Below, piece by piece: positions 2,153 to 49,018 of a stretch of 64,000 nucleotides of DNA; the first letter of the stretch is position 1; every line of letters starts with the position of its first letter. The position numbers and the translations under genes were made by a program. Under the pieces are notes generated by a model. The model made no database searches. It saw only the letters and a list, made by a program, of their open reading frames with translations, and had not been told where the DNA came from. The stretch is from Siderastrea siderea (Eukaryota > Cnidaria > Anthozoa > Scleractinia > Rhizangiidae). The DNA lies in NCBI GenBank assembly GCA_964030785.1, contig OZ034969.1, positions 29,802,901-29,866,900 of the forward strand. The letters run 5' to 3'.

Positions 2153-5100
2153 ATGAAAACTCTCAGTTTTGTGTTGTTTTTGTTTGGAGCATTGTCGACG
2201 GCTTGTGCAGGTGAGCGGAATATATTTCACGATGATCCCTGATTCAATCCTGAACTAAAATTGTTCACACACATTGTTCAACAGAAGTTTCCAACCTGAC
2301 ATGTACACTTGATCTTGGTTTGGTGGCTGACAAAACAGGGAGCATCAAAAGGAGAAACATCCCCAAAATGAAAATAGCACTTCAACTTCTCGTACAGCGG
2401 TTTGACATCTCAGCAGACAAGACTCGTGTCTCATATCTAACGTTCGCCAGGAGAAACAAGCTTCACAACAAGTTCAACGACGGCGCCTACCACAGCCAAG
2501 CCGCCATTCTAGCATTGATCTCCGGAAGTATCAAAAACCTTGGCCGTCAAACTCGCCTTGACAGAGCAATGAAATCAGCTAATGAAAAGATGTTCACCCT
2601 CAAGAATGGACTCAGACATGGCGTTGCAAAGGCATTGGTGCTGTACACTGATGGCAAAACACATCCGACTTCGAGGGACATGAGCCCACACGTTGCGGCA
2701 CTTAAGGTAACACCATAAGTGGTCGCTGAGATCATACAATACAAGATCAGAAAGGTAAAGCTGGTTTTAAAGTAGATAATAAGGCTGATTCAACAGCTTG
2801 TTGCCTGGTTTTGCTTGCACCTCCTGCCCAGATGTGCACCTGGCGACGCCAGCCTTTTCCAAGCACTAATGTTGATGTTAGGTACATTAAGGCGTCACTT
2901 ACATTAATGAAGACTTGATTCAAATGGACATTGGCAGCTAATGGAGGACTCAAAGCAACGAATTGGTTGTTCCAGGACAGAATATAGCATTCTCCGAATG
3001 TCGGCAACTAAAAAATGAGGGATATATGTTAGGCCCTGGACTTCCTGAGGCTTTTAAAAGCTTTTTTTCTGCATAAAACAAGAAAGTAAATTCTCGGAGT
3101 AAATTACACGCATGATAACGAATTTATTTGGTTATGAAAAGTATGTCATTAAGTGAGACAGATTACTCCAATTCACGCATTTGAAATCTAGCTCATTTAT
3201 GCGCCGATCAATTCGAAACTTCAACATCCCCCTCCCCCCCCCCCCGGGCATACCCCGGGCATTTGACTGTGTATCGTGCCCGGGGAGGGGGGAATTTGAA
3301 CGTTGCGTTGGAAGGGTGGGGAATTTGAACCGGATTTATCCCTTGTTCTGACGTAATAGGCCAGTGAATTTTTTCGGTTTTGGGGGGGTCTGACGGATTT
3401 ACAAGATAGAATTTCGCCTTTGTTAGTGAAAAACTCTTTGAAAAGGGTCTTTAAAAGAAGATTGAAGGTATCATTACCAAATATCTCTCTCTGAAAGGCA
3501 TGTAAAGTGCTTGATTGAAGACCAAATTTGCCTTTGAGGAGAGGCAGTTCAGTACTTATTGGTGGGGCATTTGAACGGCTTTCTTGCCCCGAGGGGAGGG
3601 AATTTTTGAACAAGCCAATCTTCAAAAGTTCAAATGCCCGGGGGGTTGCCCGAGGGGGATGTCGAACTTTCCAATTGATCGGCGCATTAAGAGGGAACAA
3701 AAACGCTAGAAGCTATACTGCGTTAATTTTGATGAATCAAAACATTTAGCGATGAAAACAAGCTTAGACTTCAGCAAAATGCAATTATATAAAAGATTCA
3801 TTCAGGAGAAACCTTTAACCCCGGGCGTTACGTTCTTACTGTATTGTAAAATACTGAAAATGTGAGGGCTCTAGGAGAATTCAGAGGTTTAATTCTAGCA
3901 ACTACGGTTTGCTTTCAAGTTCCTGTGGTATATATATATTTTTTGCAATTGATGTATTGATATACGTATCTAGTAAATCTAATGGCCCGCAAATTAACTT
4001 AAGCTTGCAGCTTTGATAAACCACAGGTTTTGCTTGCTTTGTTATGTCTTAGGGGAAAGGTGTCCGCATCGTAGTTGTCGGTATTGGTCCATTGTCCAGA
4101 AAACCAGAGTACCGCAAGGTTTTAAAAGAGATTGGTGGAGAAAACTTGCTTTTTGCTCATGGCTATAGCAGTCTTGATGATCACGTCAACGACATAATGA
4201 ACTTGGTTTGTCGTGAGTACAACAAATTCAAACCTTTTCCTTACTTTTAGCGGACTTCATAAACACATAAAGCTTCCTTATTCTCAATCTGTTAATTATC
4301 AATCTAAAATATTAGTATTGACTGAAAGTATCCTTAACACTCAAACATGTTTTAAGGGATCATCAGGCGAGCATCAGACCTGTCTAATGCCGGAATATAG
4401 CGCGCATTTATAACATCAATGAAGTAAAAAACCACATTGTGTTTAGGTTATCGTCTAAACTCAATGACGAAAGATTTGGACTTGGAAAAGAGTTGTGCCA
4501 ACTTTTATCGCCTCGGTCATGCACTCCCCGCAAATGCTTAGCCCCACAGCTATTGTGATATTCCAGAAGACTGAATATGTTTAATTTGTTGTATTCTATT
4601 GCTTTACACAGTCGACTATCTCGTCAGTTTCTTTAGCATCACAGTGTTAAATATATCACACTTAAAATAGCTTGATCTGATTCGATATCATTCATTCACA
4701 GCCTCCGGGGGTAACCAAATGGCAAATGAAACAAGGTACGTGTTAACCTGAACATCTTTTTTCAAAGATGCAACTGTAAGTAAGAAGCCCTTGGGCTTTA
4801 AGATCGATCCTTTTACTCTTATTACTCGTGGAGCCGAACACTAGATGCTATTACTGTTTTTTCTTTTCTTTCTCATTTCAAGAAAGAACGTTAATGTCTT
4901 TGCACTCTGATTGGCTGTCACAGCTGATCATTCAATTCCTAATTGAGATAGGGTGTTGGGAAATTCGTTTAACCATGTAATTAACCTTGCAATCATTGTT
5001 GATTTAGTCCTGCAGGGGGCCCAAAAAAGAATCCAAATGCAGTGGTGTGCACTCACTTCAGAGCAAAGAAGCAGCTCACATGCAAAAAGTAGGTATGAGT

Positions 5101-6479
5101 CAGTATGCTGAGATAGTAGGCAATGTCCTAAACTGGAAAGAGCGTATTGGTTTTGCAGTAGAACCATAGAATGCATTTTATCCACCATTTTCTGAGGTTG
5201 TTTGTCGCTTAAGATTTGTTGATTATCACCTCTTTTGTTACCAAGAAAATCGAAGTTCAGCAATAAAAGACATTCCGTCGGGGACCGCGGAGAAGATAAA
5301 AAAGCAATGACACGTAGTTGACCATAGGTATGCATAATGCAGTTACATGTAATTAGGGAAAAAGGTCAATGGGACATACAATGTTGATGTTTTTAAAAGT
5401 TCTTCCAGCGGACATATTTAAGACAAAAACTGCATGAAGAGGGCCAGAAGGTTTTCCTTAGTGTCCTTAGTTTCCATGCTGAAAATACAGACTTTAGAAA
5501 CTTCTAAGCGTGACAATGCAGCGTAGGAGCAGTTTTCGAATAATGTATAAACCAAAACCATTGTCAATTATTATGGCCAATCACAAACGCAAACAATATG
5601 ATGCGTCGATCTGCACTAAAACCAAATACATATGAAAATAGGGTCAGGCACGGGAAGAAACGTACGCGCAAGTCACGGTTGCTTTTGGCTTTGCTGCAAA
5701 TTGATTGAGATAGTGGCTCCATTTTTTTTTACCAACCACAGAACGAAGAAAACGCAAATTAAGTTGTGAAACTCAAACTTAAAACTGCCTTAACACCATT
5801 TAACAAATAGATTCGTGCGTCTGTTCAGATGCCGCCAAAATGTGGTAAGAACGAAAACGTGGCACACTAGCCGTTTATAGGCGAGTGTGTCACTGATGTT
5901 CTTACCACATTTTGACCGTCTTCTATGATCTATTACTGAACAGACACACGGCACCATGAAATCTATTTGTTTTAGCTAATAAAGAGACAAAAAGTTGCTA
6001 ATGATGACGTCATCTATGTGTCCGTCCTCTAATAGATTATAGCTAAGAACCAATAAAAATGGTCGTAGAATTCAGCAAATTATATAATTTCTTATACATT
6101 CAACAGAGGTGATGTGCAGGTGACATGTCCCACTCAACCACCAAAGCAGCCAAGAGACGATAAGCCTGGTGGCCCCACACCACTCGGCGAGTACCTTATT
6201 GGAAAAAGGCACAAACACTGGAAGCACAAAATCGACTGGTACAATCTCTACTCCAAAAAAGAGGACAACTCTGGTTACTATGGCTACACTCAGCCTACCA
6301 AAACGGGGCGTTTGGCGATGGGCCTGCATCCCGGAAAAGTAAGCTTAGGCTGCGTGACGGTCAAGGCGCCAACTTACGACAAAGACCCTTGTTGGCAGAG
6401 AATCCGCAAGGTCATAGATGCCGGGAATATGAAGTACCGCGGCTCCGCCTACAGCGGATTTTTGTATGTTGTCAAATGA
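2153..6479 (+). CDS. Secreted vWA - Tlde1/L,D-transpeptidase-like protein (gene 1)
   Basis: Predicted exons are 2153-2210, 2285-2706, 4053-4212, 4702-4735, 5008-5088 and 6107-6479. All introns are GT-AG. The coding length is 1128 bases, giving 375 residues and a TGA stop. Residues 1-19 (MKTLSFVLFLFGALSTACA) form a signal peptide. Residues about 28-213 are a vWA domain: DKTGS at 35-39, Thr109 and Asp142 fit the three MIDAS metal-binding motifs, and Cys26 and Cys213 bracket the domain. A short basic linker follows. Residues about 260-375 resemble the Tlde1/DUF2778 family of the L,D-transpeptidase fold: GGPTPLGEYLIG, then IDWYNLY, then GLHPGKVSLGCVTV with candidate catalytic His326 and Cys334. 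Bacterial relatives cut or exchange peptidoglycan peptides, so an extracellular bacterial-wall target is inferred. The start is chosen because it gives a signal peptide conserved with gene 2. The acceptor at 5008 rather than 5016 is chosen because only it keeps the frame conserved with gene 2. Activity is not shown. Confidence 0.8.
2285..4212 (+). CDS. Gene 1 vWA domain exons (2285-2706 and 4053-4212)
   Basis: The first exon carries the nucleotide-binding-like half of the vWA fold, with beta strand 1 followed by the DxTxS MIDAS motif. The second starts GKGVRIVVVGIG, a typical late vWA strand, and ends at LVC. Between them is an intron of about 1.35 kb holding a foldback insertion at 3200-3686. 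Gene 2 has the same boundaries with identical exon lengths (422 and 160 bases), which strongly supports both splice models. Confidence 0.85.
3200..3686. mobile_element. PIF/Harbinger-like MITE in gene 1 intron 2
   Basis: Terminal inverted repeats read TGCGCCGATCAATT at the left and AATTGATCGGCGCA at the right. The element is flanked by TTA on both sides (3197-3199 and 3687-3689), a 3-bp target duplication typical of PIF/Harbinger. The interior has C-rich and G-rich inverted segments (CCCCGGGCAT types). No transposase is encoded. Confidence 0.75.
3690..4052. other. Rest of gene 1 intron 2
   Basis: AT-rich intron sequence with no recognisable element. It ends in TTATGTCTTAG, which matches the acceptor of gene 2 at 31830. 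Confidence 0.6.
4213..5007. other. Gene 1 introns 3 and 4 around the 34-base exon
   Basis: Intron 3 is 4213-4701. It aligns to the gene 2 intron on both sides of the Ty3 insertion, for example at TGTCTAATGCCG in both. Exon 4 (4702-4735) encodes a short neutral linker, PSGGNQMANET plus a split Ser. Intron 4 (4736-5007) ends in TTGATTTAG. No other feature is seen. Confidence 0.6.
5802..5971. mobile_element. Small foldback/MITE in gene 1 intron 5
   Basis: The segment starts AACAAATAGATT and ends AATCTATTTGTT. Inner inverted pairs include GTCTGTTCAG with CTGAACAGAC, and ATGTGGTAAGAACG with GTTCTTACCACAT. It is about 170 bases with no coding capacity. It lies inside the 1-kb last intron (5089-6106), the rest of which shows nothing recognisable. 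Confidence 0.65.
6107..6479 (+). CDS. Gene 1 terminal exon: Tlde1/L,D-transpeptidase-like domain
   Basis: This single exon encodes the whole C-terminal domain. Landmarks in order are GGPTPLGEYLIG (the G-P-x-P-x-G-x-Y motif that opens the domain in Tlde1-type proteins), IDWYNLY, GYYGY, then GLHPGKVSLGCVTV with His codon 6327-6329, Ser codon 6342-6344 and Cys codon 6351-6353. DKDPCWQRIRKVI follows, and the protein ends in YSGFLYVVK. The His-x7-Cys spacing in an HPG...S.GC context suggests an intact active site. Confidence 0.75.
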
Positions 6480-37100: not shown

Positions 37101-40100
37101 ATAAGTCAGTTTGTCTATTGTTTGTCTGTCTTGTTATTGTCGGCAATCAGTCGTTTGTAAGGTGCAGGTAGCTTTTGGCAACGGTTCAGTGGTGTTTGTT
37201 CTAAGTTAGTAAACCAGCTTTCCAGAGTGATTCGTTGATAGTAGTCCGTACTGTAGGTAACGCATTCAGCAGAGTCCCAGTCGATTCTGTGGTTTGTTTT
37301 TAAATGGTGCTCAGCAATGTGATTGTTGATATCACCATTTCTGGTCGCTCGTTTGTGTTCAGTCAGTCGGACGTTCAGATTTCTGCCGGTCTCACCAATA
37401 TAAGTGGCCTGGCAGTCGCACCATTTGATTTTATAAACTGCTCCCCGTCTGTCGCTCGGTTCGTCTTTGTCTTTAACGTTCGTCAGTAGCTGTCGTAAAG
37501 TAGTGATAGGTTTGTGAGCAACGCGGATGTTGTAGGGTTGTAGGATTCGTGCGATAGTTTCAGAAGTCCCTTTGATGTAAGGTATGGTTGCAGTAGTGAC
37601 AGTTGTCGCGTTAGTGTTCGTAGCGTTTGGTTCGGAGTTTCTGTAAGTGTTGTGTCTAATAAAGTCCCGGTTGTAATTGTTCTTGTTGAAAACGTTGTCT
37701 AAGTACTTGTTTTCGTCCGTTAAGCTGTCAGGTGAGTCACAAACTAGTTGCGCGCGTCTTGTCAGGGCCTGTACAGTCGTAGCTTTGTGAGAAGTTGGCT
37801 TGTAAGATGATTGGTCGAGTAGTCTGTCAGTATGTGTCGGTTTTCTGTAAATTGTCGTCCGTAGTTCGTTATTGTCGCGGGCAACTAAGCAGTCTAGAAA
37901 AGGTCTTGTCAGGGTCCGTATAGTCGTAGCTTTGTGAGAAGTTGGCTTGTAAGATGATTGGTCGAGTAGTCTGTCAGTATGTGTCGGTTTTCTGTAAATT
38001 GTCGTCCGTAGTTCGTTATTGTCGCGGGTAACTAAGCAGTCTAGAAAAGGTATTTTACCATTTTCCTCGATCTCCTTAGTAAACTGTATGTCGGCGTTTT
38101 GTCCGTTGAGGTGTTCGTGAAAATCGTCAATTTCGTCTTTGTGTACTGCTGTAAAGGTATCGTCAACGTAACGTAGCCAGAGTGGTAGTGTTCGTTTGTA
38201 AGTTGCGAGGGCTCGTTCCTCGATGTTTTGCATAACGATTTCTGCAACAACAACGGAAACTGGTGAGCCCATAGCTGTTCCGTGCAACTGTTTGTAGTGC
38301 TTGCCGTTGTACTGAAAATACGTAGAAGTAAGACAAAGGTTCAGTAAGTCCATTAAAGGGACACTGTCACCAATATCTAGGTAACTTTGAAAAGCAAAAG
38401 GACATATTCTAATCAGCGGAAATCCAAAAATACTGGTTGAATTTCGTTTAAAATTACTCTACCAGTTCCGTTGAGATTATAATGGAGTGTGTTTTGCTGC
38501 GGATTGTTAGGATGGATATGTTTGCAACTTGAAAACATCAGGCTGATGTTTTCAAGTTTTTCCTTTGTTTCTTGGAAAAATCGCCAGTAACTGAATATGG
38601 TTTGTTCTTCCTTTGAGAAAATCATATGATTTCCTTTTCTTGACGTTCTAGGAGTATTCTGTGTACGAGAAAAAAGCATTTAATTCAAATTTCAGCACAT
38701 TTTCACCCCAAAACGTAAAAATCCCCGTGACAGTGTCCCTTTAAGTCGTCTGTAGGTAGCGGTAGTTCAATAGTAGAGTTGTTGATGGCGGTCTCAGTGC
38801 AGTCTAGAGCCAGTTGAAGTGGAATACTGGTGAACAGTGATTTCACATCAAAAGACACTAGTTTGTAGTTGTCAGGTACTTGTACTGTTTTGATTGCGTC
38901 AATAAAGTTCTCAGTCGACTGTAGTTTGTGTCGTGATTCGTCGGTCAAAGGTTTCAGTACGGTAGTCAAGTATTTGGACAGTTGGTAAGTCGGGGACCCA
39001 CAGAATGAGACTATGGGTCGCATGGGTATGTTAGGTTTGTGCAGTTTTGGTAGTCCGTAAAGTTTCGGTGGTTGTGGTACACGAAACCTCAGTCTGTTGT
39101 AGCGTTGAATGTCAATAGCGTCAGTTTTCTTGAGGTCAAGTAGTTTGCTGTTAAGTTTGCGTTGAAGTGCTCGCGTCGGGTCTCGTTTAAGTACTTGGTA
39201 GGTCTGTTTGTCGTTAACAAGTGCCTCCATTTTGTCGTAATAGTCTGTCTTGTCCATAAAAACAGTCACTCGTCCTTTGTCAGCGGGGAGTATGACAAAG
39301 TTTTCGTCGGTTTTCAGTCGTTTTAGTGTCATTTTACTGTCATTTACAGTTTTACGGTAAAATAACTCTTGAAAACAGTGGATAATTTACAGTAAATGGT
39401 ATCCAGCGGCCATAACATGATGAAAAACAGGATTCTACATTCAATGGTGTAAGGTTAGAGCAAAACCAAGCTTATAAGTCGAGCAGAAAAGTACTAATTT
39501 GCGAACAAATAATTCTGACCTAAAGCATGACCTTTGTATTTTAAAACGAATGAAGCGTATCCGTTTGCCAAACAGAATTAGAAGAACATAGCTTTCCAAT
39601 TGACAGTTGTAAAACAGAATCAAAGTTATTCACAATAAACAGATTGAATTTACGACAAAATGTGTCAAATGTGTGCAACACTGTGCAATAATCTGTAAAC
39701 AAAACCAAAAGAGAATTTCTAGTAGTTTCGAAGCGAACACGCGTCTCCAATTACAAAATACAAACCGACAAGTAAAATAAAAGCACAAATAGATAAACTA
39801 GATTTGCTTGAATCACGAAAAAGAATTATAACTCCAAGTTTATACTGAAATGATACGCTTAATAAAACTATACAGTAATTAACGAGGTCAAGTACCTAGG
39901 TTAATAACAGTAAACAAGAAATTCTGAAGAATTTATAGGCGGCCGATGGTAACCAGGTAGATATGGAGTTCCGCTTTTAGGCTTGGCTAAATCTATACAT
40001 TAGTTTAATTTATCACTCAAGTTTCCTCAGACATAAACTGAGCTACGTATACGTTAATAGAAGATGGTATTTGACTTTAATATGTCCTCCAAAGATTCTT

Positions 40101-43100
40101 TAGGAGTCTACTCGTCGACGAAGCTTTAGAATAACAAACTGACTAAGGAAACAGCAGTAACAAACATCAAGAAATCATTTTGTTTTTCAGCAAATCCACG
40201 TTAAGTTCTGTATCAACATCGTCAATATCAAGTTCAATGTGTCTTTCAACACCCTCCAAAAGTGGTGAGGGTGGTTCAACTTCAGAGTCAACAAGGTAAA
40301 CGAAAACTGTTTCTGTTCACTCGCAATTCTTCAATTTTTCCCTCATTACAAATAAGAAGCCTTGCGGGTTTTTTGGGCTAAGTTCCGCAAGGGGCCATTG
40401 CAAATTACAACTGATCAATCAACATCCGCTTGAAATGGAGTGTTAAGAGGTTCGTTAAGGTCGTGTAATTTAGACCCCTCAAAACCATTCTACGTTCAGC
40501 GCGTTTCGGCTCGTTTGTGAAGGGCCTGAAGATAACAATCAGAAAAGAACATACCATTGAAAATTTATGTCGCGTCAATGCGATGCATCTGAACTCCTGA
40601 TTTCGGGCTGAACTCTGCACGGTCGGACTCGTTTGCAAGTGAAGTGAAATCCAAGAGATTTAATATTATATTATATTATATTCAACAACGTCTTCACCTA
40701 CGGAGTCCAGGTAATGACTGTAATTGTTGTTAACTTCAAGACTTCAGTCTATTTTGAATAAATTAATCAAACAAGGAAGCTGAAAGATTAATATTTATTG
40801 ATTTATTGAAAGATTAATATTTATTGTATTCCGTTTGCTATATAAATAAAAATCCAAGCTGGGCTAACAGAATTCAATAATCAATCGTTTCTCTTTTAGG
40901 ACTTTGAGCCGGTCTACTTCAAGTTCAGTGTCACCATCGTCCTCACTGGTGTCAACTTCGTCGAGGTAATAAAGGGGTCCTTCCATTAAGTGTGAAGACG
41001 TTGCTCAAGCTAAAAGTTATAAAATTATTTTTTCATGTTATCATCATCATCATCATCATCATCTACATCAGCTTTATATTTGTTATATTTGTTTGCCTCA
41101 GGGTAGTCCTCAAAATGTACCAGTGCTTATTATTGAAGATACCTTCATGATTAGAAGATAGAAACAGAGCTAGATGCGTCTTACGCAAAATCCCGAGTTT
41201 GAATAATACCCCATATACATGATAGCTACAATTTTTTGCCTTTAGATTTACGTCCCTTTCTGCCCGCATTGTCAGTAACTTTATCGCTCCTGGACCTTGT
41301 TTTATTTATTAACTGTACATTTCAAGCAGGTTAACAGCTATATATTAATTGATATCCGTTTTCCTTTTATGCCTTTCAGCGTGTCTACTTCAAGTTCAGT
41401 GACACCATCGCCTTTGCTTTCTACCTCATCAATGGTCACAACCTCGTCAAGGTATACTTTACTAGCTTTCTAACGCTCTAAATCGAGGCAATGCTCTTTT
41501 GTCAAAGAATATAAGCCCGGAAGGCTGAAACGTTTTAAGTATATATTGAAACATTTTTCATTTTCCGGACCCCCTCCATCGATATAACTTTTAGTTTAAT
41601 TTATCATTCAAGTTTCTCAAGTCTTTAACGAATGTTAATAAATGAAATGATCTTATATTTGAATTGCGGATTAAAGATAGAAATATATGTAGACCATGGC
41701 GATGACGATACTTCAACTTAAGCAGTTGAAAGAAGAAACCTGAAAAAATTCAGGCTTGAACGGGAATCGAACACATGACCTCTGCGATACCGGTGCAGCG
41801 CTCTAACCAACTGAGCTATCAAGCCAACTGGGAGCTGGGAGCTGGTCAATTATCCCGTGCATGGAGAATGAAGGAATGTTAATATATGAAATGAATTTTT
41901 TCAGGTTTCTTCTTTCAACTGCTTAAGTTGAAATATCGTCACTGTGATGGTCTACATATATTTCTACCAAGTTTTTTAGTTTAATTTATCACTCAAGTTT
42001 CCTCAGACATAAACTGAGCTACGTTAATAGAAGATGGTATTTGACTTTAATATGTCCTCCAAGGATTCTTTAGAAGTCTACTCGTCGACGAAGCTTCAGA
42101 ATAACAAACTGACTAAGGAAACAGCAGTAACAAACATCAAGAAATCATTTTGTTTTTCAGCAAATCCACGTTAAGTTCTGTATCAACATCGTCAATATCA
42201 AGTTCAATGTGTCTTTCAACACCCTCCAAGGGTGGTGAGGGTGGTTCAACTTCAGAGTCAACAAGGTAAACGAAAACTGTTTCTGTTCACTTGCAATTCT
42301 TCAATTTTTCCCTCATTACAAATAAGAAGCCTTGCGGGTTTTTTTTTTGGGCTAAGTTCCGCACGGGACCATTGCAAATTACAACTGATCAATCAACATC
42401 CGCTTGAAATGGAGTGTTAAGAGGTTCGTTAAGGTCGTGTAATTTAGACCCCCTCAAAACCATTCTACGTTCAGCGCGTTTCGGCTCGTTTGTAAAGGGC
42501 CTGAAGATAACAATCAGAAAAGAACACACCATTGAAAATTTATGTCGCGTCAATGCGATGCATCTGAACTCCTGATTTCGGGCTGAACTCTGCACGGTCG
42601 GACTCGTTTGCAAGTGAAGTGAAATCCAAGAGATTTTATGACCATAAGCAACTATGCATGTGAAGGAAAAAGCTCCATTTCTCCTCGTACAAGAATGTCA
42701 GCCGAACAACCCCCTTACAAACCTGGCATAGGAAGATTTATTATTTCCGCAGTAACCGAAGATAATCTCCCACGTATTGGCAGGCCCTCTCAGATCTTTC
42801 TCAGATTTCTAATAAATTCTGGGAAGCTGAATGAACTTAGTTAACTATTTATATAGACTACAAGTAGTCTCTCTTTCCGCTCAAAGATAGTCGAGGAAAA
42901 CGAACAAGCGAGCGAGTGTGAAATCGCCTGCTCACTACACTAGCGGCTCGACACGCGCGTCACGTTTCAACGCAGCAGGCGATTTTGCGCTCGCTCGCTT
43001 GCTTCAGCTCGTTTTCCTCGACTATCTCAACGCGACAGGCGATTTCGCACTCGTTCGCTTGTTCGTTTTCCTCGACTATCTTTGAGCGGAAAGAGAGACT

Positions 43101-46100
43101 TCTCGTAGTCTACTATTTATAAGAATTAGCTTACTTATTTAACTACGGAACTGTAATTATATTTCCACAACTACCAAAGCATTTGCCTTATTAAATTATT
43201 CGTAAAGGTTCAGCTTCTTTAGATTTCCACTTATATAATGCCCTTATAGAATGCTCGCAAATCTCGAATTATTGAATTGATGAATATTTGACTTATAACT
43301 TATAACTTATACCCTTTTCTGCAGAAAAAAAATTAGGGTAACATTAGTTCGACCCACGTAAGGGAATCCAAGCGAGTCGTGGATTCCGATTCCGACGGTT
43401 GGATTCCGGATTCCATGCCTATGGATTCTGGATTCCAAAGTAAACTTTCTGTGATTCCGGATTCCAAAGTTCTTTACTCTGGTTTTCATTCGTATTTCAA
43501 AGGCCAATACTTTTTATTCTGTATCTGAAGTCGTCTATCTAAACAGGAAAGTTCATTTGCTCTCCAAAAGCGAGTGTGTTAATGCTGATGCATATCTATA
43601 ATGGCTAATTTTCTAATCTAATTATAGGACTTTTTGACGGCTATTCTTTGTTTGTTCAATACCGTTCATAATAGTGGACACCTTCAAGAATTTTTTTATT
43701 TAGCCCCTTCACTAAAAGTTTAAAAATGTTAAAAATCACAGTTTACGTATCGATAAAGTTTTTTTACATACAAATACTTGTGAGCTTTAAATGTAAAGAC
43801 AGAGATTTCAGAAAATTTCCAATAAGCGACATAAGTAGCGGCTTGCTTAGAAAAAGGGCGACGTAAGAGTGCCTTTAATCTAGGGGGGCTGGGAGCATGA
43901 CCCCCCCTCCCCCCAAAAAAAATGTTTTTTGAAATCTAGATCCTCGGAAATGCAATTTCCAACATTCTGGACATCAAATAGAGTTGCGTTCATGAAAATT
44001 TTCATTGCGATATAGCGAATTTTTTCTGTGAAGACTGAGTAGTAAAAACGACTTACAGTCGCTGTTGTTGTTGTTTCCTTCTTTCATAAACTCTTAGCAG
44101 GAGCCCTCGCGAAAGCACTAACACAAAGCATTTATATGGAAAGCGGTACTGATTAAGCCCTATAGATGGCGGTGGACCTCCGGTAATCGGCATACACCAG
44201 ACACCACTACTAAAGAGGCAGCGTCTTCCAAAATTAACTGCCGACTGGTTGGCTCAATTGGTTGGGTACCAGACTTCGGAGCGTTAGGCCCGGGTTCGAT
44301 TACCGGCCGGACCAACACTCAGGGTCTTAAAATGACTGAGTAGAATGTGCTGCCTTTGTTTTACATCTCAGTGCAATAGCTAGACTTTGTAGTCTTCTCG
44401 GATAAGGACGAAAAACCGTATGACCCGTCTCAAGGCACTTTCACCGTCTTCACTGATCTGACCGTCACTGTGAGATGTATAAGACCCACTTACTGCTTTT
44501 CGAAAATAGCAGGGGATGTATACCCCGCTGGTGTGCTGAGCCTTTCATGCACTGGGTGGGTAATTAAGGGGTTGATGTCAATTGGGACGCAGTCCTGTTT
44601 TATCCTCTCACTGGGTTGATTCCCCGTGGCGAAAGAATTCAATAAATAAAAAAATTAATTGGTTAAAATGCCGTTTTGAATAAACATCCGCTCTGAACAG
44701 AAGCCAGGGCGGAAGGCATGTTTTTAAATGCACAAGTGTTTTTACTCCAACCCGCTCTCTGGTGCTCATTGCTAAGATTTCTGTGAAATACTTCGGAAGG
44801 TCGATGCAAAAATTTTGTCTAGGCTGCTCGGTGTAAGCGATTTTTTTTTCGCAAAATTTTCCCTTTCATGATTTTTTTGTCATTCTCCTTGATTCGCCCC
44901 CCCCCCCCCCCCAACACCCCCTCCATACTTTTCCTAGTGGTCCGTCCCTAATGGGTCTTGTTTTCATTCTCGCTGAGCGTCCACCCACCCTTCCTCCGAT
45001 CGTTTGTTGGGGATGATCGTTTCGTGACCAACCAAAAGAACCTTAGCTTTGCGTAGGATCGGAGGCTATTTAAAGAGTGGGTGAGCTCTCTATGAGCCAA
45101 CTGCCATCCATCACAGTTTTAAGCCCAGCAGCGGTGACACAGGCAGTACTTCGTAAAAATTGAATTTTCAAGTATCAGTTCGAAGCAAAATAATTCCAAA
45201 CTGAGTAATGCTGGGCAAAGATTTTTTGATTTCACGATCTGACACATGGAAATTATCTCAATAAACACAAGACCGACATGTATGACTACCAAATAGCTAT
45301 GTATTTATCAATTATCTTTCCCAGCTTCAGTGTACTTCTTTCGGCGTTTCCGTCCTTGATAAACAGATTATCAAAACAGCAGAATAAAACGGTAAACATT
45401 GGATACCACTACATGTAGCTCGATGTGAAAACCTGCATGAAAGAAAACAACTGTAAACGGTGTTCAGCATTTAGGGAGCGACCCTAAAACGAAGACTGGT
45501 GGAATGACGGAAGGGCGGAAGGGCGAAAAATCACCCCAAATCCTAAAACGCGGAACCGCGGAAAATCACCCATAAACCTAAAACGCAGAATGGCGGAAAA
45601 TCACCCATAATCCTAAGATGCAGAAAACAAAAATAGATGGCACTGATTCGTTTTCGCGAGATACATCGTGACGAAAAACAGTCACGCTAAGCCAAATGGC
45701 GTGTCTCTCGCGCCCAGTTATTAAAATAACGCCTGTTATGCAGGCTACAAGTCAATCATTTGGCTCAAAATTACAATGTACTGCATGCTAGAAACATGCA
45801 ACATGGAATTAATTGCCATAATTATCTTTCTTCTTTGGGACTCATGTTTTAGTCGGATCACATTTAAATGCCTCAAATATATCAAATTTCCTAAATTTTG
45901 TGCAAAGAATCCCGGAGAGGGTACTCTATAAATTTTAGGGTTGGGGTGTGCCGCTGGTACCCTGAAACTCTTGGCCTATACCAGACCATGGTCAGCTGCA
46001 AGGTGTCTGGCGAACCACCCACCCCCCCCCCCCCCCCCCCGTTACCTGTACAGCACGAACTGTAACTAACTTCATATTCCCGTACCTTTTCCCCACTTTC

Positions 46101-49018
46101 AGCAGTTTACTAAAGTAAAACAAAACAAAAGACATCTGCAGAACTTGCACTTCTCTTCCTGATTCTCTTTAATCCAACTGTTTGTTCATATCCTTTCTTA
46201 AAAATCACATACTTGTCAGTGCAAGAATATTTAGAGGCTACATTAGACAAATGTTTCCATTGTTAGAAGTCGTGCAGGCCTGTCGTTCCTTGCTACGTCC
46301 CACTTTTAAACGTTGTAAAATAAGCTGTTAAATGTTGTTTTTCTAGTATCATATTGCATACCCTTAGTTTAAATTGTAACGTTTTGCCCTTAGAGTCACT
46401 CTCTGTGAGACCCTGAAGAAGAAAGGTTGTGCATTTTGAAATATTGGTTAAAATATACACTAAGTTTTCCTACCGTTGAATCAGCATTGTTTTTTTTATC
46501 GAATTTAGTTCTTTATTTTTTGCTGATTAGATCCTTTACTACAAGAATCGGTACTTTTATTTTGTTACGGTGGTCCAAGAAAAATTAATCATTTCCTACT
46601 AAAACAAAGTCCAAATGACAATAACAATCATAAAAATCATTTTAAAATCATAAAAACTAAACACTGAGCTAACATTAACGTAACACTAACTTTAAAAGCA
46701 ATTAATATGAACAGCAACTGTCCATATATGTAAGCCTAAAAAAGCAATGTATTAATTTTGGAAATTCAATTAATATGAAAGGAAAAAATCGAGCGATTGA
46801 ATCGAACGATAGGCTAAAACGTAACAAAACAATACTTTAACTATTTAGTTTGGAAAAAAATGAATAAAAAATCTAACAGGATTACCGTTGTCAACGACAT
46901 TCCCTATACCGATAAGCTAATAGAACTGAGACTAAGGGGTGCTGAACCCGGTGCTGAATGGTACTAATAATTGTCATACGATATCCAAATGTCGGAAGTG
47001 TTTTTGATGGGTTGCGTCGTTTTAGTGTGTTCCTTTTCATTTCGACGGAGTTCAGAACTTTTTGCCCGACATCGGGTGAGTCATGGAATTTACCATTCGC
47101 CACCCCTAGAGTGTTATACTGCAAGTCTAAGGGAGTCAATTTGGCCCCAAAAGCCACTGAGTTCTCTTCGTTTTAAAATACACCAAACTCACTACGCAAA
47201 TGCTGAAGATGGACACCATCCATCAATTTGGGGGTCGCTACTATCGGGGGCATGGTTACTTTCGTGGATTTATTAGCTTGCTCCAATTTTTAACATGTCG
47301 CGTTTTAGGATTGTGGGTGATTTTTCACCTTTCCGCGATTTAGGATTTGGGGTGATTTTCCGCCGTTCTGTCATTCCGCCATTCCTCGTTTTAGGGTCGC
47401 CCGCTTTTAGGAGACAGTCCGGGTGAAAGTAGGAAAAGTTCAGAAAGACGGTATGTCAGAAAAATAATTTAAACATATGAAACATGTGCCCAATAAGGAA
47501 TCACACACACCCAGCCGCAGTGTTGACATAATTGATGTACATGTTTTTTGGTGATGGTGGTGGTAGGGACGCCGAGGGGAGAGGCGAGGTGGTGATTTGT
47601 TATGAAATTGCTACTAACAGTGCAGTACATTCCAGACCGGAATTCCAGAGTTCTGGATGAAGCTGGATTCCTGATTCCACGGGTTGGATTCCGGATTTCA
47701 CGGGTTGGATTCCGGATTCCAAAGCCTAGGATTCCGGATTCCAAAGGCAAAAAAATGTTGGATTCCGGATTCCGGATTCCCTTACATGGGGCGACTTAGT
47801 GGTGCTGTCTTGATTTCCCGTTATAATTATTACAAATATTTTCGTTTGCACTGTGATTGTTGTTGTTCCAGTCCCGCAGGGGGCCCAAGCAAGAACCCCA
47901 ACGCAGTGGTATGCACCTCCTACAGAAGCGCCAAGAAAGTCACGTGCAAAAAGTAGGTAATGATCTACGAAACCATTTAATGTTAAAACTGTTCGAACGA
48001 AACAGAACAACAATAACCAAGGTCCCAAATATCAAAAGTTTTTTCTTGAGTCTACTTGCAGCGAAGACACCTAAAAGTGGAAATTGCCACGAAATTATAT
48101 TTTTAAAGTCGTCATTATGGACTCTCAAATAGCATTTTATTCCACTTTATTACATTGTATTTGTTTCTGTCGTACCACGAGAAAATTAGTTCGTAAACAA
48201 AACAAAGAGGCATGTTGATGAGGGTGAAACTCGCATAAAGTGTTCCATAACCTAACTGATGGGATCATATATAATTTACAGGAGTGTGGTCAAAAATTAG
48301 CTCTGTGAATGTACAAATGCAACTTTGGGACAGCGTACTTTAGGATTTATTGTAGCACACTTTGAAATTAAAACTATTGGCAGAAGCCGGGGGCGTCTCT
48401 AGGGTGTTTGCATTGTATGTTGGCATTCAACTTAGCATATCTCGGTTATTTTGCAATAGATCGAATTGAGCCCTTTTTAAAGCTCCATATGATTTCTATT
48501 TGAACGCATAGTTTGTGTTCAAATAACCTCTAAACAAACCTCTGAAAACTACACACTTATTACTTAACACTTTTTAATTATGTCCAGGAACCACTGCGGC
48601 ATTTTAACCATTTCCTTTTACAATCAATAGAGGTGAGACTGAGGTGATGTGTCCCACCGTACCACCAGTCGAGCCAAGTGAGGATAAGGAAGGTGGACCC
48701 ACACCACTGGGAGAGTACCTTATTGGCGAGAGGCGTACAAATCCGACTTACAACATCGACTGGTACAATCTTTATCAAAAAAAAGAGAACAACTGTGGTT
48801 ACTATGGTTACAGAAAGCCTAATAAAAAAGGGCGTGATAAGATGGGTATACATCCCGGAAAAGTCAGCGAAGGCTGCGTGACAGTAAAGGCACCAAATTA
48901 CGACAATGATGCTTGTTGGAAAAAAATTCGCAAGGTTATAGACAGCGGGAATATGGTTTATACTGGAGAAAGCGGTTTCACCTCGACCTACAGTGGATTT
49001 TTGTATGTTGTTAAATGA
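31169..49018 (+). CDS. Secreted vWA - mucin-like linker - Tlde1/L,D-transpeptidase-like protein (gene 2)
   Basis: Predicted exons: 31169-31226, 31316-31737, 31831-31990, 35355-35451, 35835-35906, 36055-36216, 36384-36449, 40191-40295, 40900-40965, 41380-41451, 42161-42265, 47872-47952, 48631-49018. The total is 1854 bases, giving 617 residues plus stop, with every junction GT-AG and every phase closing. Signal peptide: MKTLSFVLFLFGVLSMTYA. vWA domain: residues about 28-213, with MIDAS DRTGS at 35-39 and Asp142 kept, but Ser109 where gene 1 has Thr. Residues about 214-462 are a Ser/Thr-rich mucin-like linker absent from gene 1. The C-terminal Tlde1/L,D-transpeptidase-like domain has HPGKVSEGCVTV with His563 and Cys571. 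The introns are bloated by a Ty3 fragment, a Penelope-like element and other repeats, so whether the full-length transcript forms is uncertain. Inclusion of each linker exon is a prediction; all but the first are skippable without a frameshift. Confidence 0.7.
31316..31990 (+). CDS. Gene 2 vWA domain exons (31316-31737 and 31831-31990)
   Basis: Same exon lengths as gene 1, but the intron between them is only 93 bases against 1.35 kb in gene 1, where insertions enlarged it. The domain reads LDLGLVADRTGSI, then SRLDRAM, then VLYTDGK, then GKGVRIVVVGIG, and ends in LVC. Confidence 0.85.
32060..35115 (+). mobile_element. Ty3/gypsy-type retrotransposon fragment in gene 2 intron 3
   Basis: The intron matches gene 1 intron 3 on either side of this block, so the block is an insertion. 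Coding remnants, in order and in several frames: a Gag-like helical domain (32254-32667); zinc-knuckle cysteines near 32841-32943, including a CHSCGRAGHITDAC knuckle; an aspartic-protease-like part with a changed active-site segment (about 33035-33340); reverse transcriptase (33346-34250) with an altered YxDD-like box (IQDDILI near 33941); RNase H (34289-34750); and a stub of the region preceding integrase (34800-34950). The integrase core and LTRs are not seen. Frame breaks and stop codons show it is inactive. Confidence 0.85.
33346..34305 (+). pseudogene. Ty3-type reverse transcriptase, degraded
   Basis: 319 open codons cover the palm and fingers of a Ty3 RT: LDLKSAYQQLLL, LPFGIASS and the DD box, then LRAFLGMVNYHGKFV of the connection. 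The Ty3 motif usually read as YKVTVNP is altered here, and the segment between the connection and RNase H is shortened. It reads out of frame into the RNase H part that follows from 34289. Confidence 0.8.
35355..35451 (+). CDS. Gene 2 linker exon 4
   Basis: 97 bases, entered with 1 base pending and leaving AG. It encodes GEQGEECGLSSSCTSSS, then SPSVLSSLSTSSVSAS. It occupies the position of the 34-base exon 4 of gene 1 and starts the Ser/Thr-rich linker. Confidence 0.65.
35600..35705. repeat. (ATATT)n pentanucleotide satellite in intron 4
   Basis: Imperfect ATATT units. Satellites of the same type lie inside exon 6 (36098-36187) and at 40664-40682, at the edge of a duplicated segment. Confidence 0.9.
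35835..35906 (+). CDS. Gene 2 linker exon 5
   Basis: 72 bases, symmetric phase 2. It encodes (R)TLSRSTSRSTSSPVSATSS, then VVTSW, and is closely similar to exon 6 without its satellite. Confidence 0.65.
36055..36216 (+). CDS. Gene 2 linker exon 6 with in-frame satellite
   Basis: A 72-base exon like exon 5 (TLSRSTSRSTSSSA ... STTSSATES) is split by exactly 90 bases of ATATT/ATATC satellite (36098-36187). The whole 162-base exon stays open and keeps symmetric phase. The satellite reads as Tyr-His-Ile-Ile-Ser repeats, unlike the hydrophilic rest. The exon may be skipped. Confidence 0.55.
36384..36449 (+). CDS. Gene 2 linker exon 7
   Basis: 66 bases, symmetric. It encodes (R)TLSWSTSSSVSPSSSLVST, then SS. 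A near-identical copy is exon 9 (40900-40965), with Arg in place of Trp. Confidence 0.65.
36495..36554 (+). repeat. Right part of the palindromic tRNA-like repeat
   Basis: CTACTTAAGTTGAAATATCG through CCAAGTTTTTTAG is nearly identical to 41921-41979. It lies directly next to the insertion that starts at 36555. Confidence 0.8.
36866..36908 (-). ncRNA. Candidate hammerhead ribozyme of the Penelope-like element
   Basis: On the minus strand: GACT, CTGATGA, a GAC...GTC stem, GAAA, CGTC, AGTC. CTGATGA and GAAA are the conserved hammerhead core. GACT pairs with AGTC as a short stem I after a GTC-type cleavage site. Stem III would be almost absent, as is said of the minimal hammerheads in Penelope-like elements. 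The fold was judged by eye only. Confidence 0.45.
37758..38051 (-). repeat. In-frame 147-base tandem duplication in the Penelope-like ORF
   Basis: Two copies encode FLDCLV(A/T)RDNNELRTTIYR, then KPTHTDRLLDQSSYKPTSHK, with few differences. The period from 37761 to 37908 is 147 bases (49 codons), so the frame is kept. Confidence 0.9.
38357..38740. mobile_element. TTAA-flanked MITE inside the Penelope-like ORF
   Basis: Ends AGGGACACTGTCAC and GTGACAGTGTCCCT, target duplication TTAA at 38353-38356 and 38741-38744. Removing it and one TTAA joins the codons for LPTDDL directly to MDLLNL in frame. Its 384 bases encode nothing. TTAA duplication fits Kolobok or piggyBac-type mobilisation. Confidence 0.9.
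40000..40660. repeat. Segmental duplication, copy 1 of the exon 8/11 segment
   Basis: Highly similar to 41976-42640, including linker exon 8, both flanking introns and the block from 40405 that reads the same in both copies. The similarity shows recent local duplication. Confidence 0.9.
40191..40295 (+). CDS. Gene 2 linker exon 8
   Basis: 105 bases, symmetric. It encodes SKSTLSSVSTSSISSSMCLS, then TPSKSGEGGSTSEST. The duplicate exon 11 (42161-42265) differs by only a few bases. Both acceptors are TTGTTTTTCAG. Confidence 0.65.
40664..41014. repeat. Segmental duplication of 36170-36494
   Basis: Starts in the ATATT satellite, carries the last 30 bases of exon 6 without its acceptor (a dead half-exon ending at the GT at 40711), then a full copy of exon 7 (exon 9, 40900-40965). 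The breakpoint inside the satellite suggests satellite-mediated recombination. Confidence 0.85.
40900..40965 (+). CDS. Gene 2 linker exon 9
   Basis: 66 bases, symmetric. A copy of exon 7 in a duplicated segment, encoding (R)TLSRSTSSSVSPSSSLVST, then SS. Confidence 0.6.
41041..41062. repeat. (ATC)n microsatellite
   Basis: Seven ATC triplets in the intron after linker exon 9. Confidence 0.9.
41380..41451 (+). CDS. Gene 2 linker exon 10
   Basis: 72 bases, symmetric. It encodes (S)VSTSSSVTPSPLLSTSSMV, then TTSS. More diverged from the others, suggesting an older duplicate. Confidence 0.6.
41690..41980. mobile_element. Palindromic element carrying a tRNA-like core
   Basis: Arms of about 60 bases (left GATACTTCAACTTAAGCAGT, right ACTGCTTAAGTTGAAATATC) flank a tRNA-like sequence. 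Its right arm is also at 36495-36554. Confidence 0.7.
41753..41825 (-). pseudogene. tRNA-like sequence (Thr GGT-like), probably not functional
   Basis: 73 bases on the minus strand with a perfect 7-bp acceptor stem (GGCTTGA with TCAAGCC), a D arm GCTC...GAGC and a TTCGATT T loop. The anticodon stem has a mismatched last pair, position 33 is C instead of T, and the T stem has an imperfect pair. It sits inside a palindromic repeat, so it is read as a SINE-like tRNA relic. Confidence 0.6.
42161..42265 (+). CDS. Gene 2 linker exon 11
   Basis: 105 bases, symmetric, the duplicate of exon 8. It encodes SKSTLSSVSTSSISSSMCLS, then TPSKGGEGGSTSEST. Confidence 0.65.
42640..42850. repeat. Copy of a segment also found at 58110-58265
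   Basis: CTTGGCATGGGAAG/CCTGGCATAGGAAG, ATTTCCGCAGTAAC and AAGCTGAATGAACT occur in the same order in both places. It links the gene 2 intron to the repeat field downstream. Confidence 0.55.
42862..43116. mobile_element. Foldback MITE
   Basis: Left CTCTTTCCGCTCAAAGATAG through TCGAGGAAAACGAACAAGCG, right the inverse ending CTTTGAGCGGAAAGAGAGAC. The interior has repeated GCAGGCGATTT and CGCTCGCTTG inverted motifs. Confidence 0.75.
43345..43470. repeat. GGATTCCGGATTCC minisatellite, copy 1
   Basis: Irregular repeats of GGATTCC. A similar block in opposite arrangement lies at 47640-47797. The outer edges, GACCCACGTAAGGGAATCC and GGATTCCCTTACATGGGGCG, are inverse to each other. Confidence 0.7.
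43471..44241. other. Gene 2 intron 11, no feature
   Basis: AT-rich sequence with short C- and A-runs around 43890-43925. No exon with the linker phase or composition was recognised. Confidence 0.5.
44242..44657 (+). mobile_element. tRNA-derived SINE
   Basis: The A box TGGCTCAATTGG (44250-44261) and B box GGTTCGATTACC (44293-44304) are followed by a long unrelated body and an AATAAATAAAAAAA tail. These are the typical parts of a SINE. Confidence 0.75.
45478..47403. mobile_element. 1.9-kb TIR element in gene 2 intron 11
   Basis: The left end, GCGACCCTAAAACGA, is inverse to the right end, TCGTTTTAGGGTCGC. Subterminal repeats of CGGAAAATCACCC with CCTAAAACGC on the left are mirrored on the right. 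The interior, including a poly-C run near 46022-46040, encodes no recognisable transposase. Confidence 0.65.
47640..47797. repeat. GGATTCCGGATTCC minisatellite, copy 2
   Basis: Several GGATTCCGGATT(C/T) units with CACGGGTT and CCAAAG spacers. It ends about 75 bases upstream of exon 12. Confidence 0.75.
47872..47952 (+). CDS. Gene 2 exon 12 (conserved pre-catalytic exon)
   Basis: 81 bases, the same length as gene 1 exon 5. It encodes (S)PAGGPSKNPNAVVCTSYRS, then AKKVTCK; the gene 1 copy reads PAGGPKKNPNAVVCTHFRA. This conserved frame decided both acceptors. Two cysteines in a basic context are shared. Confidence 0.75.
47953..48630. other. Gene 2 last intron
   Basis: 678 bases, AT-rich, ending CAATCAATAG. 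It lacks the MITE found in the gene 1 counterpart. Nothing else is seen. Confidence 0.6.
48631..49018 (+). CDS. Gene 2 terminal exon: Tlde1/L,D-transpeptidase-like domain
   Basis: Landmarks as in gene 1: GGPTPLGEYLIG, IDWYNLY, GYYGY, then GIHPGKVSEGCVTV with His codon 48851-48853 and Cys codon 48875-48877, then DACWKKIRKVID and YSGFLYVVK. It is five codons longer than gene 1, the visible extra being GESGFTS near the end. Retention of both candidate catalytic residues in both paralogues argues for selection. Confidence 0.75.

What the first reader, a model, noticed from the sequence alone, without database searches (positions are those of the whole stretch)
2153..6479. Animal secreted protein joining a vWA domain to a Tlde1/L,D-transpeptidase-like domain
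Seen: a spliced six-exon gene encoding a signal peptide, a vWA domain with MIDAS residues, and a C-terminal domain with GGPTPLGEYLIG and GLHPGKVSLGCVTV. Known: Tlde1/DUF2778 proteins are bacterial type VI effectors of the L,D-transpeptidase fold acting on peptidoglycan, with catalytic His and Cys in an HPG...S.GC context. Inference: an animal lineage acquired this domain, perhaps by horizontal transfer, and uses it outside the cell against or to sense bacteria. I do not recall this architecture being described in animals.
Basis: partly seen in the sequence, partly recalled or inferred. Interest (0 to 1): 0.92.

Follow-up and report, generated by a model that had tools for sequence, protein, structure and literature searches.

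The report
Coral-type vWA protein with Tlde1-like domain
A coral-like animal carries several neighbouring genes that join an animal adhesion-type domain to an enzyme-like domain of bacterial origin, whose known bacterial relatives attack the cell walls of rival bacteria, so the animal may use it against microbes.

The parts
2153..2210 (+). exon 1 of gene A: signal peptide (residues 1-20)
   Evidence: GT donor; hydrophobic N-terminus read by eye; same exon length in L009, L010, L011
2285..2706 (+). exon 2 of gene A: vWA domain with DKTGS, T109 and D142 of a MIDAS-like site
   Evidence: Pfam VWA; collagen VI, a thread matrix protein and integrin A domains among 51 PDB sequences at E <= 0.001
4053..4212 (+). 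exon 3 of gene A: end of vWA domain
4702..4735 (+). exon 4 of gene A: linker PSGGNQMANET
5008..5088 (+). exon 5 of gene A: start of Tlde1-like domain (SPAGG...)
   Evidence: collinear with P0001 and with bacterial relatives
6107..6479 (+). exon 6 of gene A: main part of Tlde1-like domain with R320, H326, S331, G333, C334
   Evidence: PF10908 and YkuD under cut-off; conservation; fold of a relative 69% identical
31169..31226 (+). exon 1 of paralogue B (signal peptide)
31316..31737 (+). exon 2 of paralogue B (vWA)
31831..31990 (+). exon 3 of paralogue B (vWA)
47872..47952 (+). exon 5 equivalent of paralogue B (start of Tlde1-like domain); no exon 4 found before it
48631..49018 (+). exon 6 equivalent of paralogue B (Tlde1-like domain)
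   Evidence: 92.7% identical to P0068 over 124 residues

Best explanation
It is a secreted animal protein, product of an anthozoan gene family whose enzyme-like domain came from bacteria, nearest to those that carry it as the tip of an RHS protein. The domain first served as a standalone secreted protein (signal-peptide exon plus a two-exon Tlde1 module); in this lineage the module was placed, at an intron on the domain border, behind a signal peptide and vWA domain, and the fused gene was duplicated in tandem. Most likely working: the vWA domain holds the protein on matrix, mucus or another surface; the Tlde1-like domain uses Cys334 as nucleophile with His326 and Ser331 to attack L,D bonds of peptidoglycan stem tetrapeptides, cutting off the last D-Ala or swapping it for another D-amino acid, with Arg320 holding the carboxylate. 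This would weaken or mark bacteria outside the animal's cells, as an immune or microbiota-control protein. Shown here: gene structure, fusion, family, predicted fold, conservation, dN/dS. Inferred: order of events, activity, substrate, role, vWA ligand.
Against: No activity data and no observed role. Tlde1a H129A lost toxicity in E. coli and half of its carboxypeptidase products, though it kept D-amino acid exchange (PMC9638812); that position is Leu here and is His in 1 of 89 rows, so a weaker or narrower activity than Tlde1a is possible. H-to-C spacing is 8, not 10. One animal row (P0048) has Arg for the Cys and one (P0086) Ser for the Gly. Foldseek TM-scores are low (query-normalised 0.36-0.42 in the rows shown). 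Pfam scores lie under cut-off. Only three RHS rows are known to me, on long branches, and in the tree with the fungal row they stand outermost; forcing the animal rows with the secreted or the no-signal bacteria is not rejected (p-AU 0.064 and 0.066). No confirmed relative in GTDB r220 contigs, viral contigs, plasmids or phages. The vWA half folded badly for want of related rows.
Confidence: 0.55

Rival explanations
1. A binding protein: the domain kept the fold and pocket but serves to recognise D-amino acids or peptidoglycan fragments (sensing, opsonising) rather than to cut them.
For: The second motif histidine, needed for Tlde1a toxicity (PMC9638812), is absent; vWA partners are often adhesive (recalled).
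Against: His, Ser, Gly, Cys and Arg are kept in 88 or 89 of 89 rows, animal ones included; pseudoenzymes usually lose the nucleophile (general knowledge).
Confidence: 0.23
2. A matrix or mucus enzyme of the animal that acts on host proteins, cross-linking or trimming them, with no bacterial target.
For: vWA domain similar to collagen VI and to a thread matrix protein.
Against: Anemones, which build no skeleton, keep the standalone form; Tlde1a and its structural homologues in PMC9638812 act on peptidoglycan.
Confidence: 0.12
3. Digestive use: a gut enzyme for eating bacteria, as for another animal wall-degrading enzyme.
For: Placozoan GH23 lysozyme, of bacterial origin, works in extracellular digestion (PMC12855814, abstract and passages).
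Against: Cutting stem tetrapeptides yields little food, and an adhesive fusion fits poorly (my reasoning).
Confidence: 0.08
4. Artefact: bacterial contamination or a wrong joining of two genes.
For: None found.
Against: Introns, a 74 Mb contig, tandem copies with the same exon borders, P0001 at 326 of 328 to the spliced L020 model, relatives named for five anthozoan genera.
Confidence: 0.01

Closest known systems
Tlde1 / DUF2778 (PF10908), e.g. Salmonella Tlde1a (T6SS effector; PDB 7uma)
   Different: Animal signal peptide and vWA; residue before Gly-Cys is not His; H-to-C spacing 8, not 10; Pfam score under cut-off
RHS-core proteins with this domain at the C-terminus (P0007, P0072, P0082)
   Same: Domain sequence and the four extra cysteines; grouped with the animal rows
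   Different: RHS core in place of vWA
Gemmata-type secreted Tlde1 proteins (P0013 and kin)
   Same: About 55-57% identity over the domain for most rows; N-terminus like a signal peptide by eye
   Different: Lack the four cysteines; single domain
Anthozoan standalone Tlde1 proteins (Acropora LOC107327945, Nematostella LOC116618446)
   Same: Same domain and cysteines; this genome's array also holds standalone-type copies
   Different: No vWA domain; the coral ones shown have an Arg-rich stretch after the signal peptide
Dae2 of ticks (domesticated amidase effector)
   Same: May work alike: a bacterial anti-wall effector taken over by an animal for defence (PMC5986905, passages)
   Different: Amidase of another fold (recalled), no vWA (recalled), other animals

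Membership tests
Tlde1 / DUF2778 (PF10908) | Pfam gathering score of 30.1 bits | tested here: inconclusive
   28.6 bits, E 2.1e-6 for exon 6: significant, cut-off not reached; 7 of 7 rows of A2 match at E <= 1, best E 1e-6; P0022 24.7, P0013 34.2 bits
Tlde1 / DUF2778 (PF10908) | catalytic Cys with Ser three before it, His upstream, Arg of the exchange pocket | tested here: met
   88 or 89 of 89 rows against residues named in PMC9638812; matched by motif and spacing, not by a printed structural alignment
Tlde1 / DUF2778 (PF10908) | strict motif (S/T)HGC | tested here: not met
   SLGC in the window; L, E, W, Q or K in the 25 anthozoan rows
Tlde1 / DUF2778 (PF10908) | delivery by a type VI secretion system with an immunity protein | not tested
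   animal gene with signal peptide; no T6SS expected
L,D-transpeptidase (YkuD) fold | fold | tested here: met
   the model is of P0022, 69% identical to the window domain
L,D-transpeptidase activity | cleavage or exchange at L,D bonds of stem peptides | not testable with these tools
   needs an enzyme assay
vWA domain (PF00092) | profile score | tested here: met
   87.2 bits against cut-off 23.8
vWA domain (PF00092) | MIDAS residues DxSxS, T, D (motif recalled) | tested here: inconclusive
   DKTGS (Thr for the first Ser), T109, D142 in A and L020; DRTES in L022
Bacterial domain acquired by an animal | animal rows beside bacterial rows in a tree, with introns in the animal genes | tested here: met
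   root not inferred, donor not fixed

The most novel reading that the evidence does not exclude
Anthozoans took the enzymatic tip of an RHS polymorphic toxin, kept its active site and cysteine pattern since before anemones and stony corals parted, spread it as secreted proteins in gene arrays, and in one coral lineage built an adhesive, targeted version by exon joining to vWA: an animal family of L,D-transpeptidase fold that edits peptidoglycan stem peptides and gives corals a means to shape their surface bacteria.
Probability: 0.42. Interest if true: 0.9.

Novelty: new variant of a known kind. Interest (0 to 1): 0.8.

Why it matters
Animals make no peptidoglycan, so an L,D-transpeptidase-fold domain kept by selection in a coral and present in anemones points to a target outside the animal. 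Tick Dae2 is a precedent for a taken-over anti-wall effector; this would be another enzyme class, in another phylum, with an adhesive fusion. It makes directly testable which coral host proteins act on surface bacteria. The RHS link adds a case to the idea, argued in PMC3482391 (passages), that toxin-system parts become eukaryotic genes.

Tried and rejected
Searched without result: PDB sequences with the domain (0 matches); NCBIfam (0 of 7); PHROGs (one unnamed family, 1 of 7 rows, E 0.0014); GTDB r220 contigs (13 and 5 pattern matches, none confirmed by tblastn); viral contigs (7, none confirmed); plasmids and phages (none). Papers: Tlde1 with cnidaria 0, YkuD with Nematostella 0. The lists are capped; I read titles and starts of abstracts there and saw nothing on this family in animals. 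The library lacks most subscription journals and preprints. PMC3482391: 12 of 101 places seen, none naming this domain; about 57,700 characters are not held, and the one YkuD mention counted was not in the held text.

Considered and dropped: contamination and wrong joining (see rivals); the exon 5 reading that my first script ranked best, which gives a linker unlike P0001. Searches used that 373-aa form; the residues scored (250-373) lie almost wholly in exon 6. The tree with the fungal row put P0054, of unknown origin, inside the animal rows; the 24 animal rows without it were not rejected as a clade (p-AU 0.403). Rows used: 55 of 88 proteins, 52 in A7, 36, 21, each plus two window copies; 88. 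A7 left out the RHS rows. Naming unnamed rows anthozoan or bacterial is mine, by similarity; 8 of the 25 anthozoan rows bear organism names and 2 are the window's. In one search Cys239 (16 of 26) and Cys250 (19 of 41) look less kept in animal rows; by my reading the exceptions are mostly ORFs that run into intron instead of exon 5. Exon 4 of paralogue B was sought with exon 4 of A, L020 and L022 and not found above chance, nor settled by a splice-site scan. Read-through into RG at the exon 5/6 border: 18 of 38 rows lacking the exon 5 part; of the 20 misses 12 start at or after the border. The halves of B differ in dS to A (0.23 and 0.68), unexplained. The confidence of the main reading was lowered from 0.60 to 0.55, and that of the novel case from 0.45 to 0.42, on re-reading that Tlde1a H129A is not toxic.

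Full report
What is there. The window lies on a 74 Mb contig of an 831 Mb genome. Gene A has six exons with GT-AG introns, 375 aa: signal peptide (by eye), vWA (Pfam 87.2 bits, E 2e-24), a short linker, and a Tlde1-like domain.

The fusion is real. P0001, an uninterrupted 328-aa ORF of a 2,027-base contig, lines up with residues 48-375 without a gap, across exon borders 2/3, 3/4, 4/5 and 5/6. The own-genome search (counts are lower bounds) gave 19 matches to exon 6: 13 on contig 4 between 29.49 and 29.91 Mb, one at 44.39 Mb, five on contig 6; six of the 19 have stops inside. Of eleven places fetched with about 9.5 kb of upstream DNA, three hold all six exons, exons 1-5 with the lengths of gene A. 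Two of them, L020 and L022, read through to 375 aa; the third, L021, stops in exon 3 after residue 195. P0001 matches the L020 protein at 326 of 328 residues, so it is best taken as a spliced transcript of that gene or of a sibling species' copy; this is inference, since the contig's origin is not given.

Two architectures share the array. In L012, L014, L015 (E 3e-5 to 2e-4) and L017 (E 4e-9) a signal-peptide exon like that of the Montipora or Acropora standalone proteins lies upstream of the Tlde1 exons; in L013 and L016 none was found; no vWA was found in L012-L016 nor in the further upstream stretches L023-L026. The copies behind L013, L015 and L016 carry stops in exon 6. Two Acropora digitifera isoforms differ just before SPAGG (P0027, P0028), which suggests an intron at the same domain border. 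Standalone first, fusion later is the likely order; this is inference.

Selection. For A, L020 and L022, dN/dS over 375 codons is 0.27, 0.31 and 0.32; vWA 0.19-0.32, linker plus Tlde1 0.29-0.39 (Nei-Gojobori). Paralogue B against A gives 0.56 (vWA, dS 0.23) and 0.32 (Tlde1, dS 0.68), so B's halves have different histories. Exon 4 of B was not found, so that B is spliced as one gene is not shown.

Where the domain comes from. Among 86 proteins at E <= 1e-3 of 1,383 candidates the named animal ones are Montipora foliosa, three Acropora species, Actinia tenebrosa, Nematostella vectensis and Porites evermanni (partial); the named bacterial ones are Gemmata sp. and a Fimbriimonadaceae MAG; one fungus, Basidiobolus ranarum, stands far off. 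P0007, P0072 and P0082 carry an RHS core before the domain (58.3, 30.6 and 36.0 bits, cut-off 32.5). In a chosen set of 23 rows Cys 239, 250, 259 and 347 occur in 9 of 9 animal rows, in P0054 and in 3 of 3 RHS rows, and in 0 of 10 other bacterial rows; over 90 rows Cys259 is in 50 of 51 and Cys347 in 51 of 52 animal rows, 3 of 3 RHS rows, and 0 of 32 and 0 of 29 other bacterial rows. In the tree without the fungus, 13 animal rows, P0054 and the three RHS rows form one side of a branch with 98/95 support; the animal rows alone 79/86; joining the animal rows to either other bacterial group is not rejected at 0.05 (p-AU 0.064, 0.066). With the fungal row, animal rows plus P0054 have 87/84 and the RHS rows stand outermost. 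The root was not inferred. A bacterial source near RHS tips is the best reading, and one transfer before anemones and stony corals parted is the simplest, not the proven, history. Searches for longer relatives returned P0001 alone with a vWA domain (in one search only the 7,998 best candidates were scored).

How it works. Shown: joined domains in a secreted-type gene, conserved active-site residues, selection. Inferred: the vWA half binds a matrix, mucus or surface ligand; the Tlde1-like half edits peptidoglycan stems, perhaps by exchange more than by cleavage. The nearest precedent in use is tick Dae2 (PMC5986905, passages); placozoan lysozyme is another animal wall enzyme of bacterial origin (PMC12855814, abstract and passages).

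Species. The nearest named relative of any fetched copy is Montipora foliosa at 87%; with the named animal hits all hexacorallian (recalled taxonomy), a stony coral is likely.

Noticed in passing
window 31169-49018 (+): Second vWA and Tlde1 exon set (paralogue B), halves 16 kb apart, no exon 4 found; unequal dS to gene A (0.23 and 0.68).
   Followed up: partly
window 32224-34749 (+) and 37115-39386 (-): Retroelement ORFs inside paralogue B's long intron: gag (21 bits, under cut-off), reverse transcriptase (81 bits), RNase H (30 bits); the minus-strand pair looks like a Penelope-type element by eye but had no Pfam match.
   Followed up: partly
L021 (contig 4, 29904600-29909800): Fused copy with all six exon borders kept but a stop in exon 3: pseudogene, or an assembly or allele difference.
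   Followed up: partly
contig 4, 29.49-29.91 Mb and contig 6, 51.79-51.94 Mb: Tlde1 gene arrays; 6 of 19 matches have stops, some are on the minus strand.
   Followed up: partly
P0022, P0027, P0030 N-termini: Standalone coral proteins carry an Arg-rich stretch right after the signal peptide, as for a protease-cleaved pro-form or a cationic tail.
   Followed up: no
P0048: An Acropora-like standalone protein with Arg in place of the catalytic Cys: perhaps a dead copy.
   Followed up: no
P0085 (Basidiobolus ranarum): A fungal protein of the same superfamily, 34% identical, without signal peptide by eye: perhaps another transfer.
   Followed up: no
P0054: Unnamed secreted-type protein with the four cysteines that falls among or beside the animal rows: perhaps another animal group.
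   Followed up: partly
window about 3198-3690: Inverted-repeat ends around a C-rich/G-rich stretch in intron 2, looks like a small transposon (read by eye).
   Followed up: no
window 41752-41825 (-): tRNA gene-like match, 51.8 bits.
   Followed up: no
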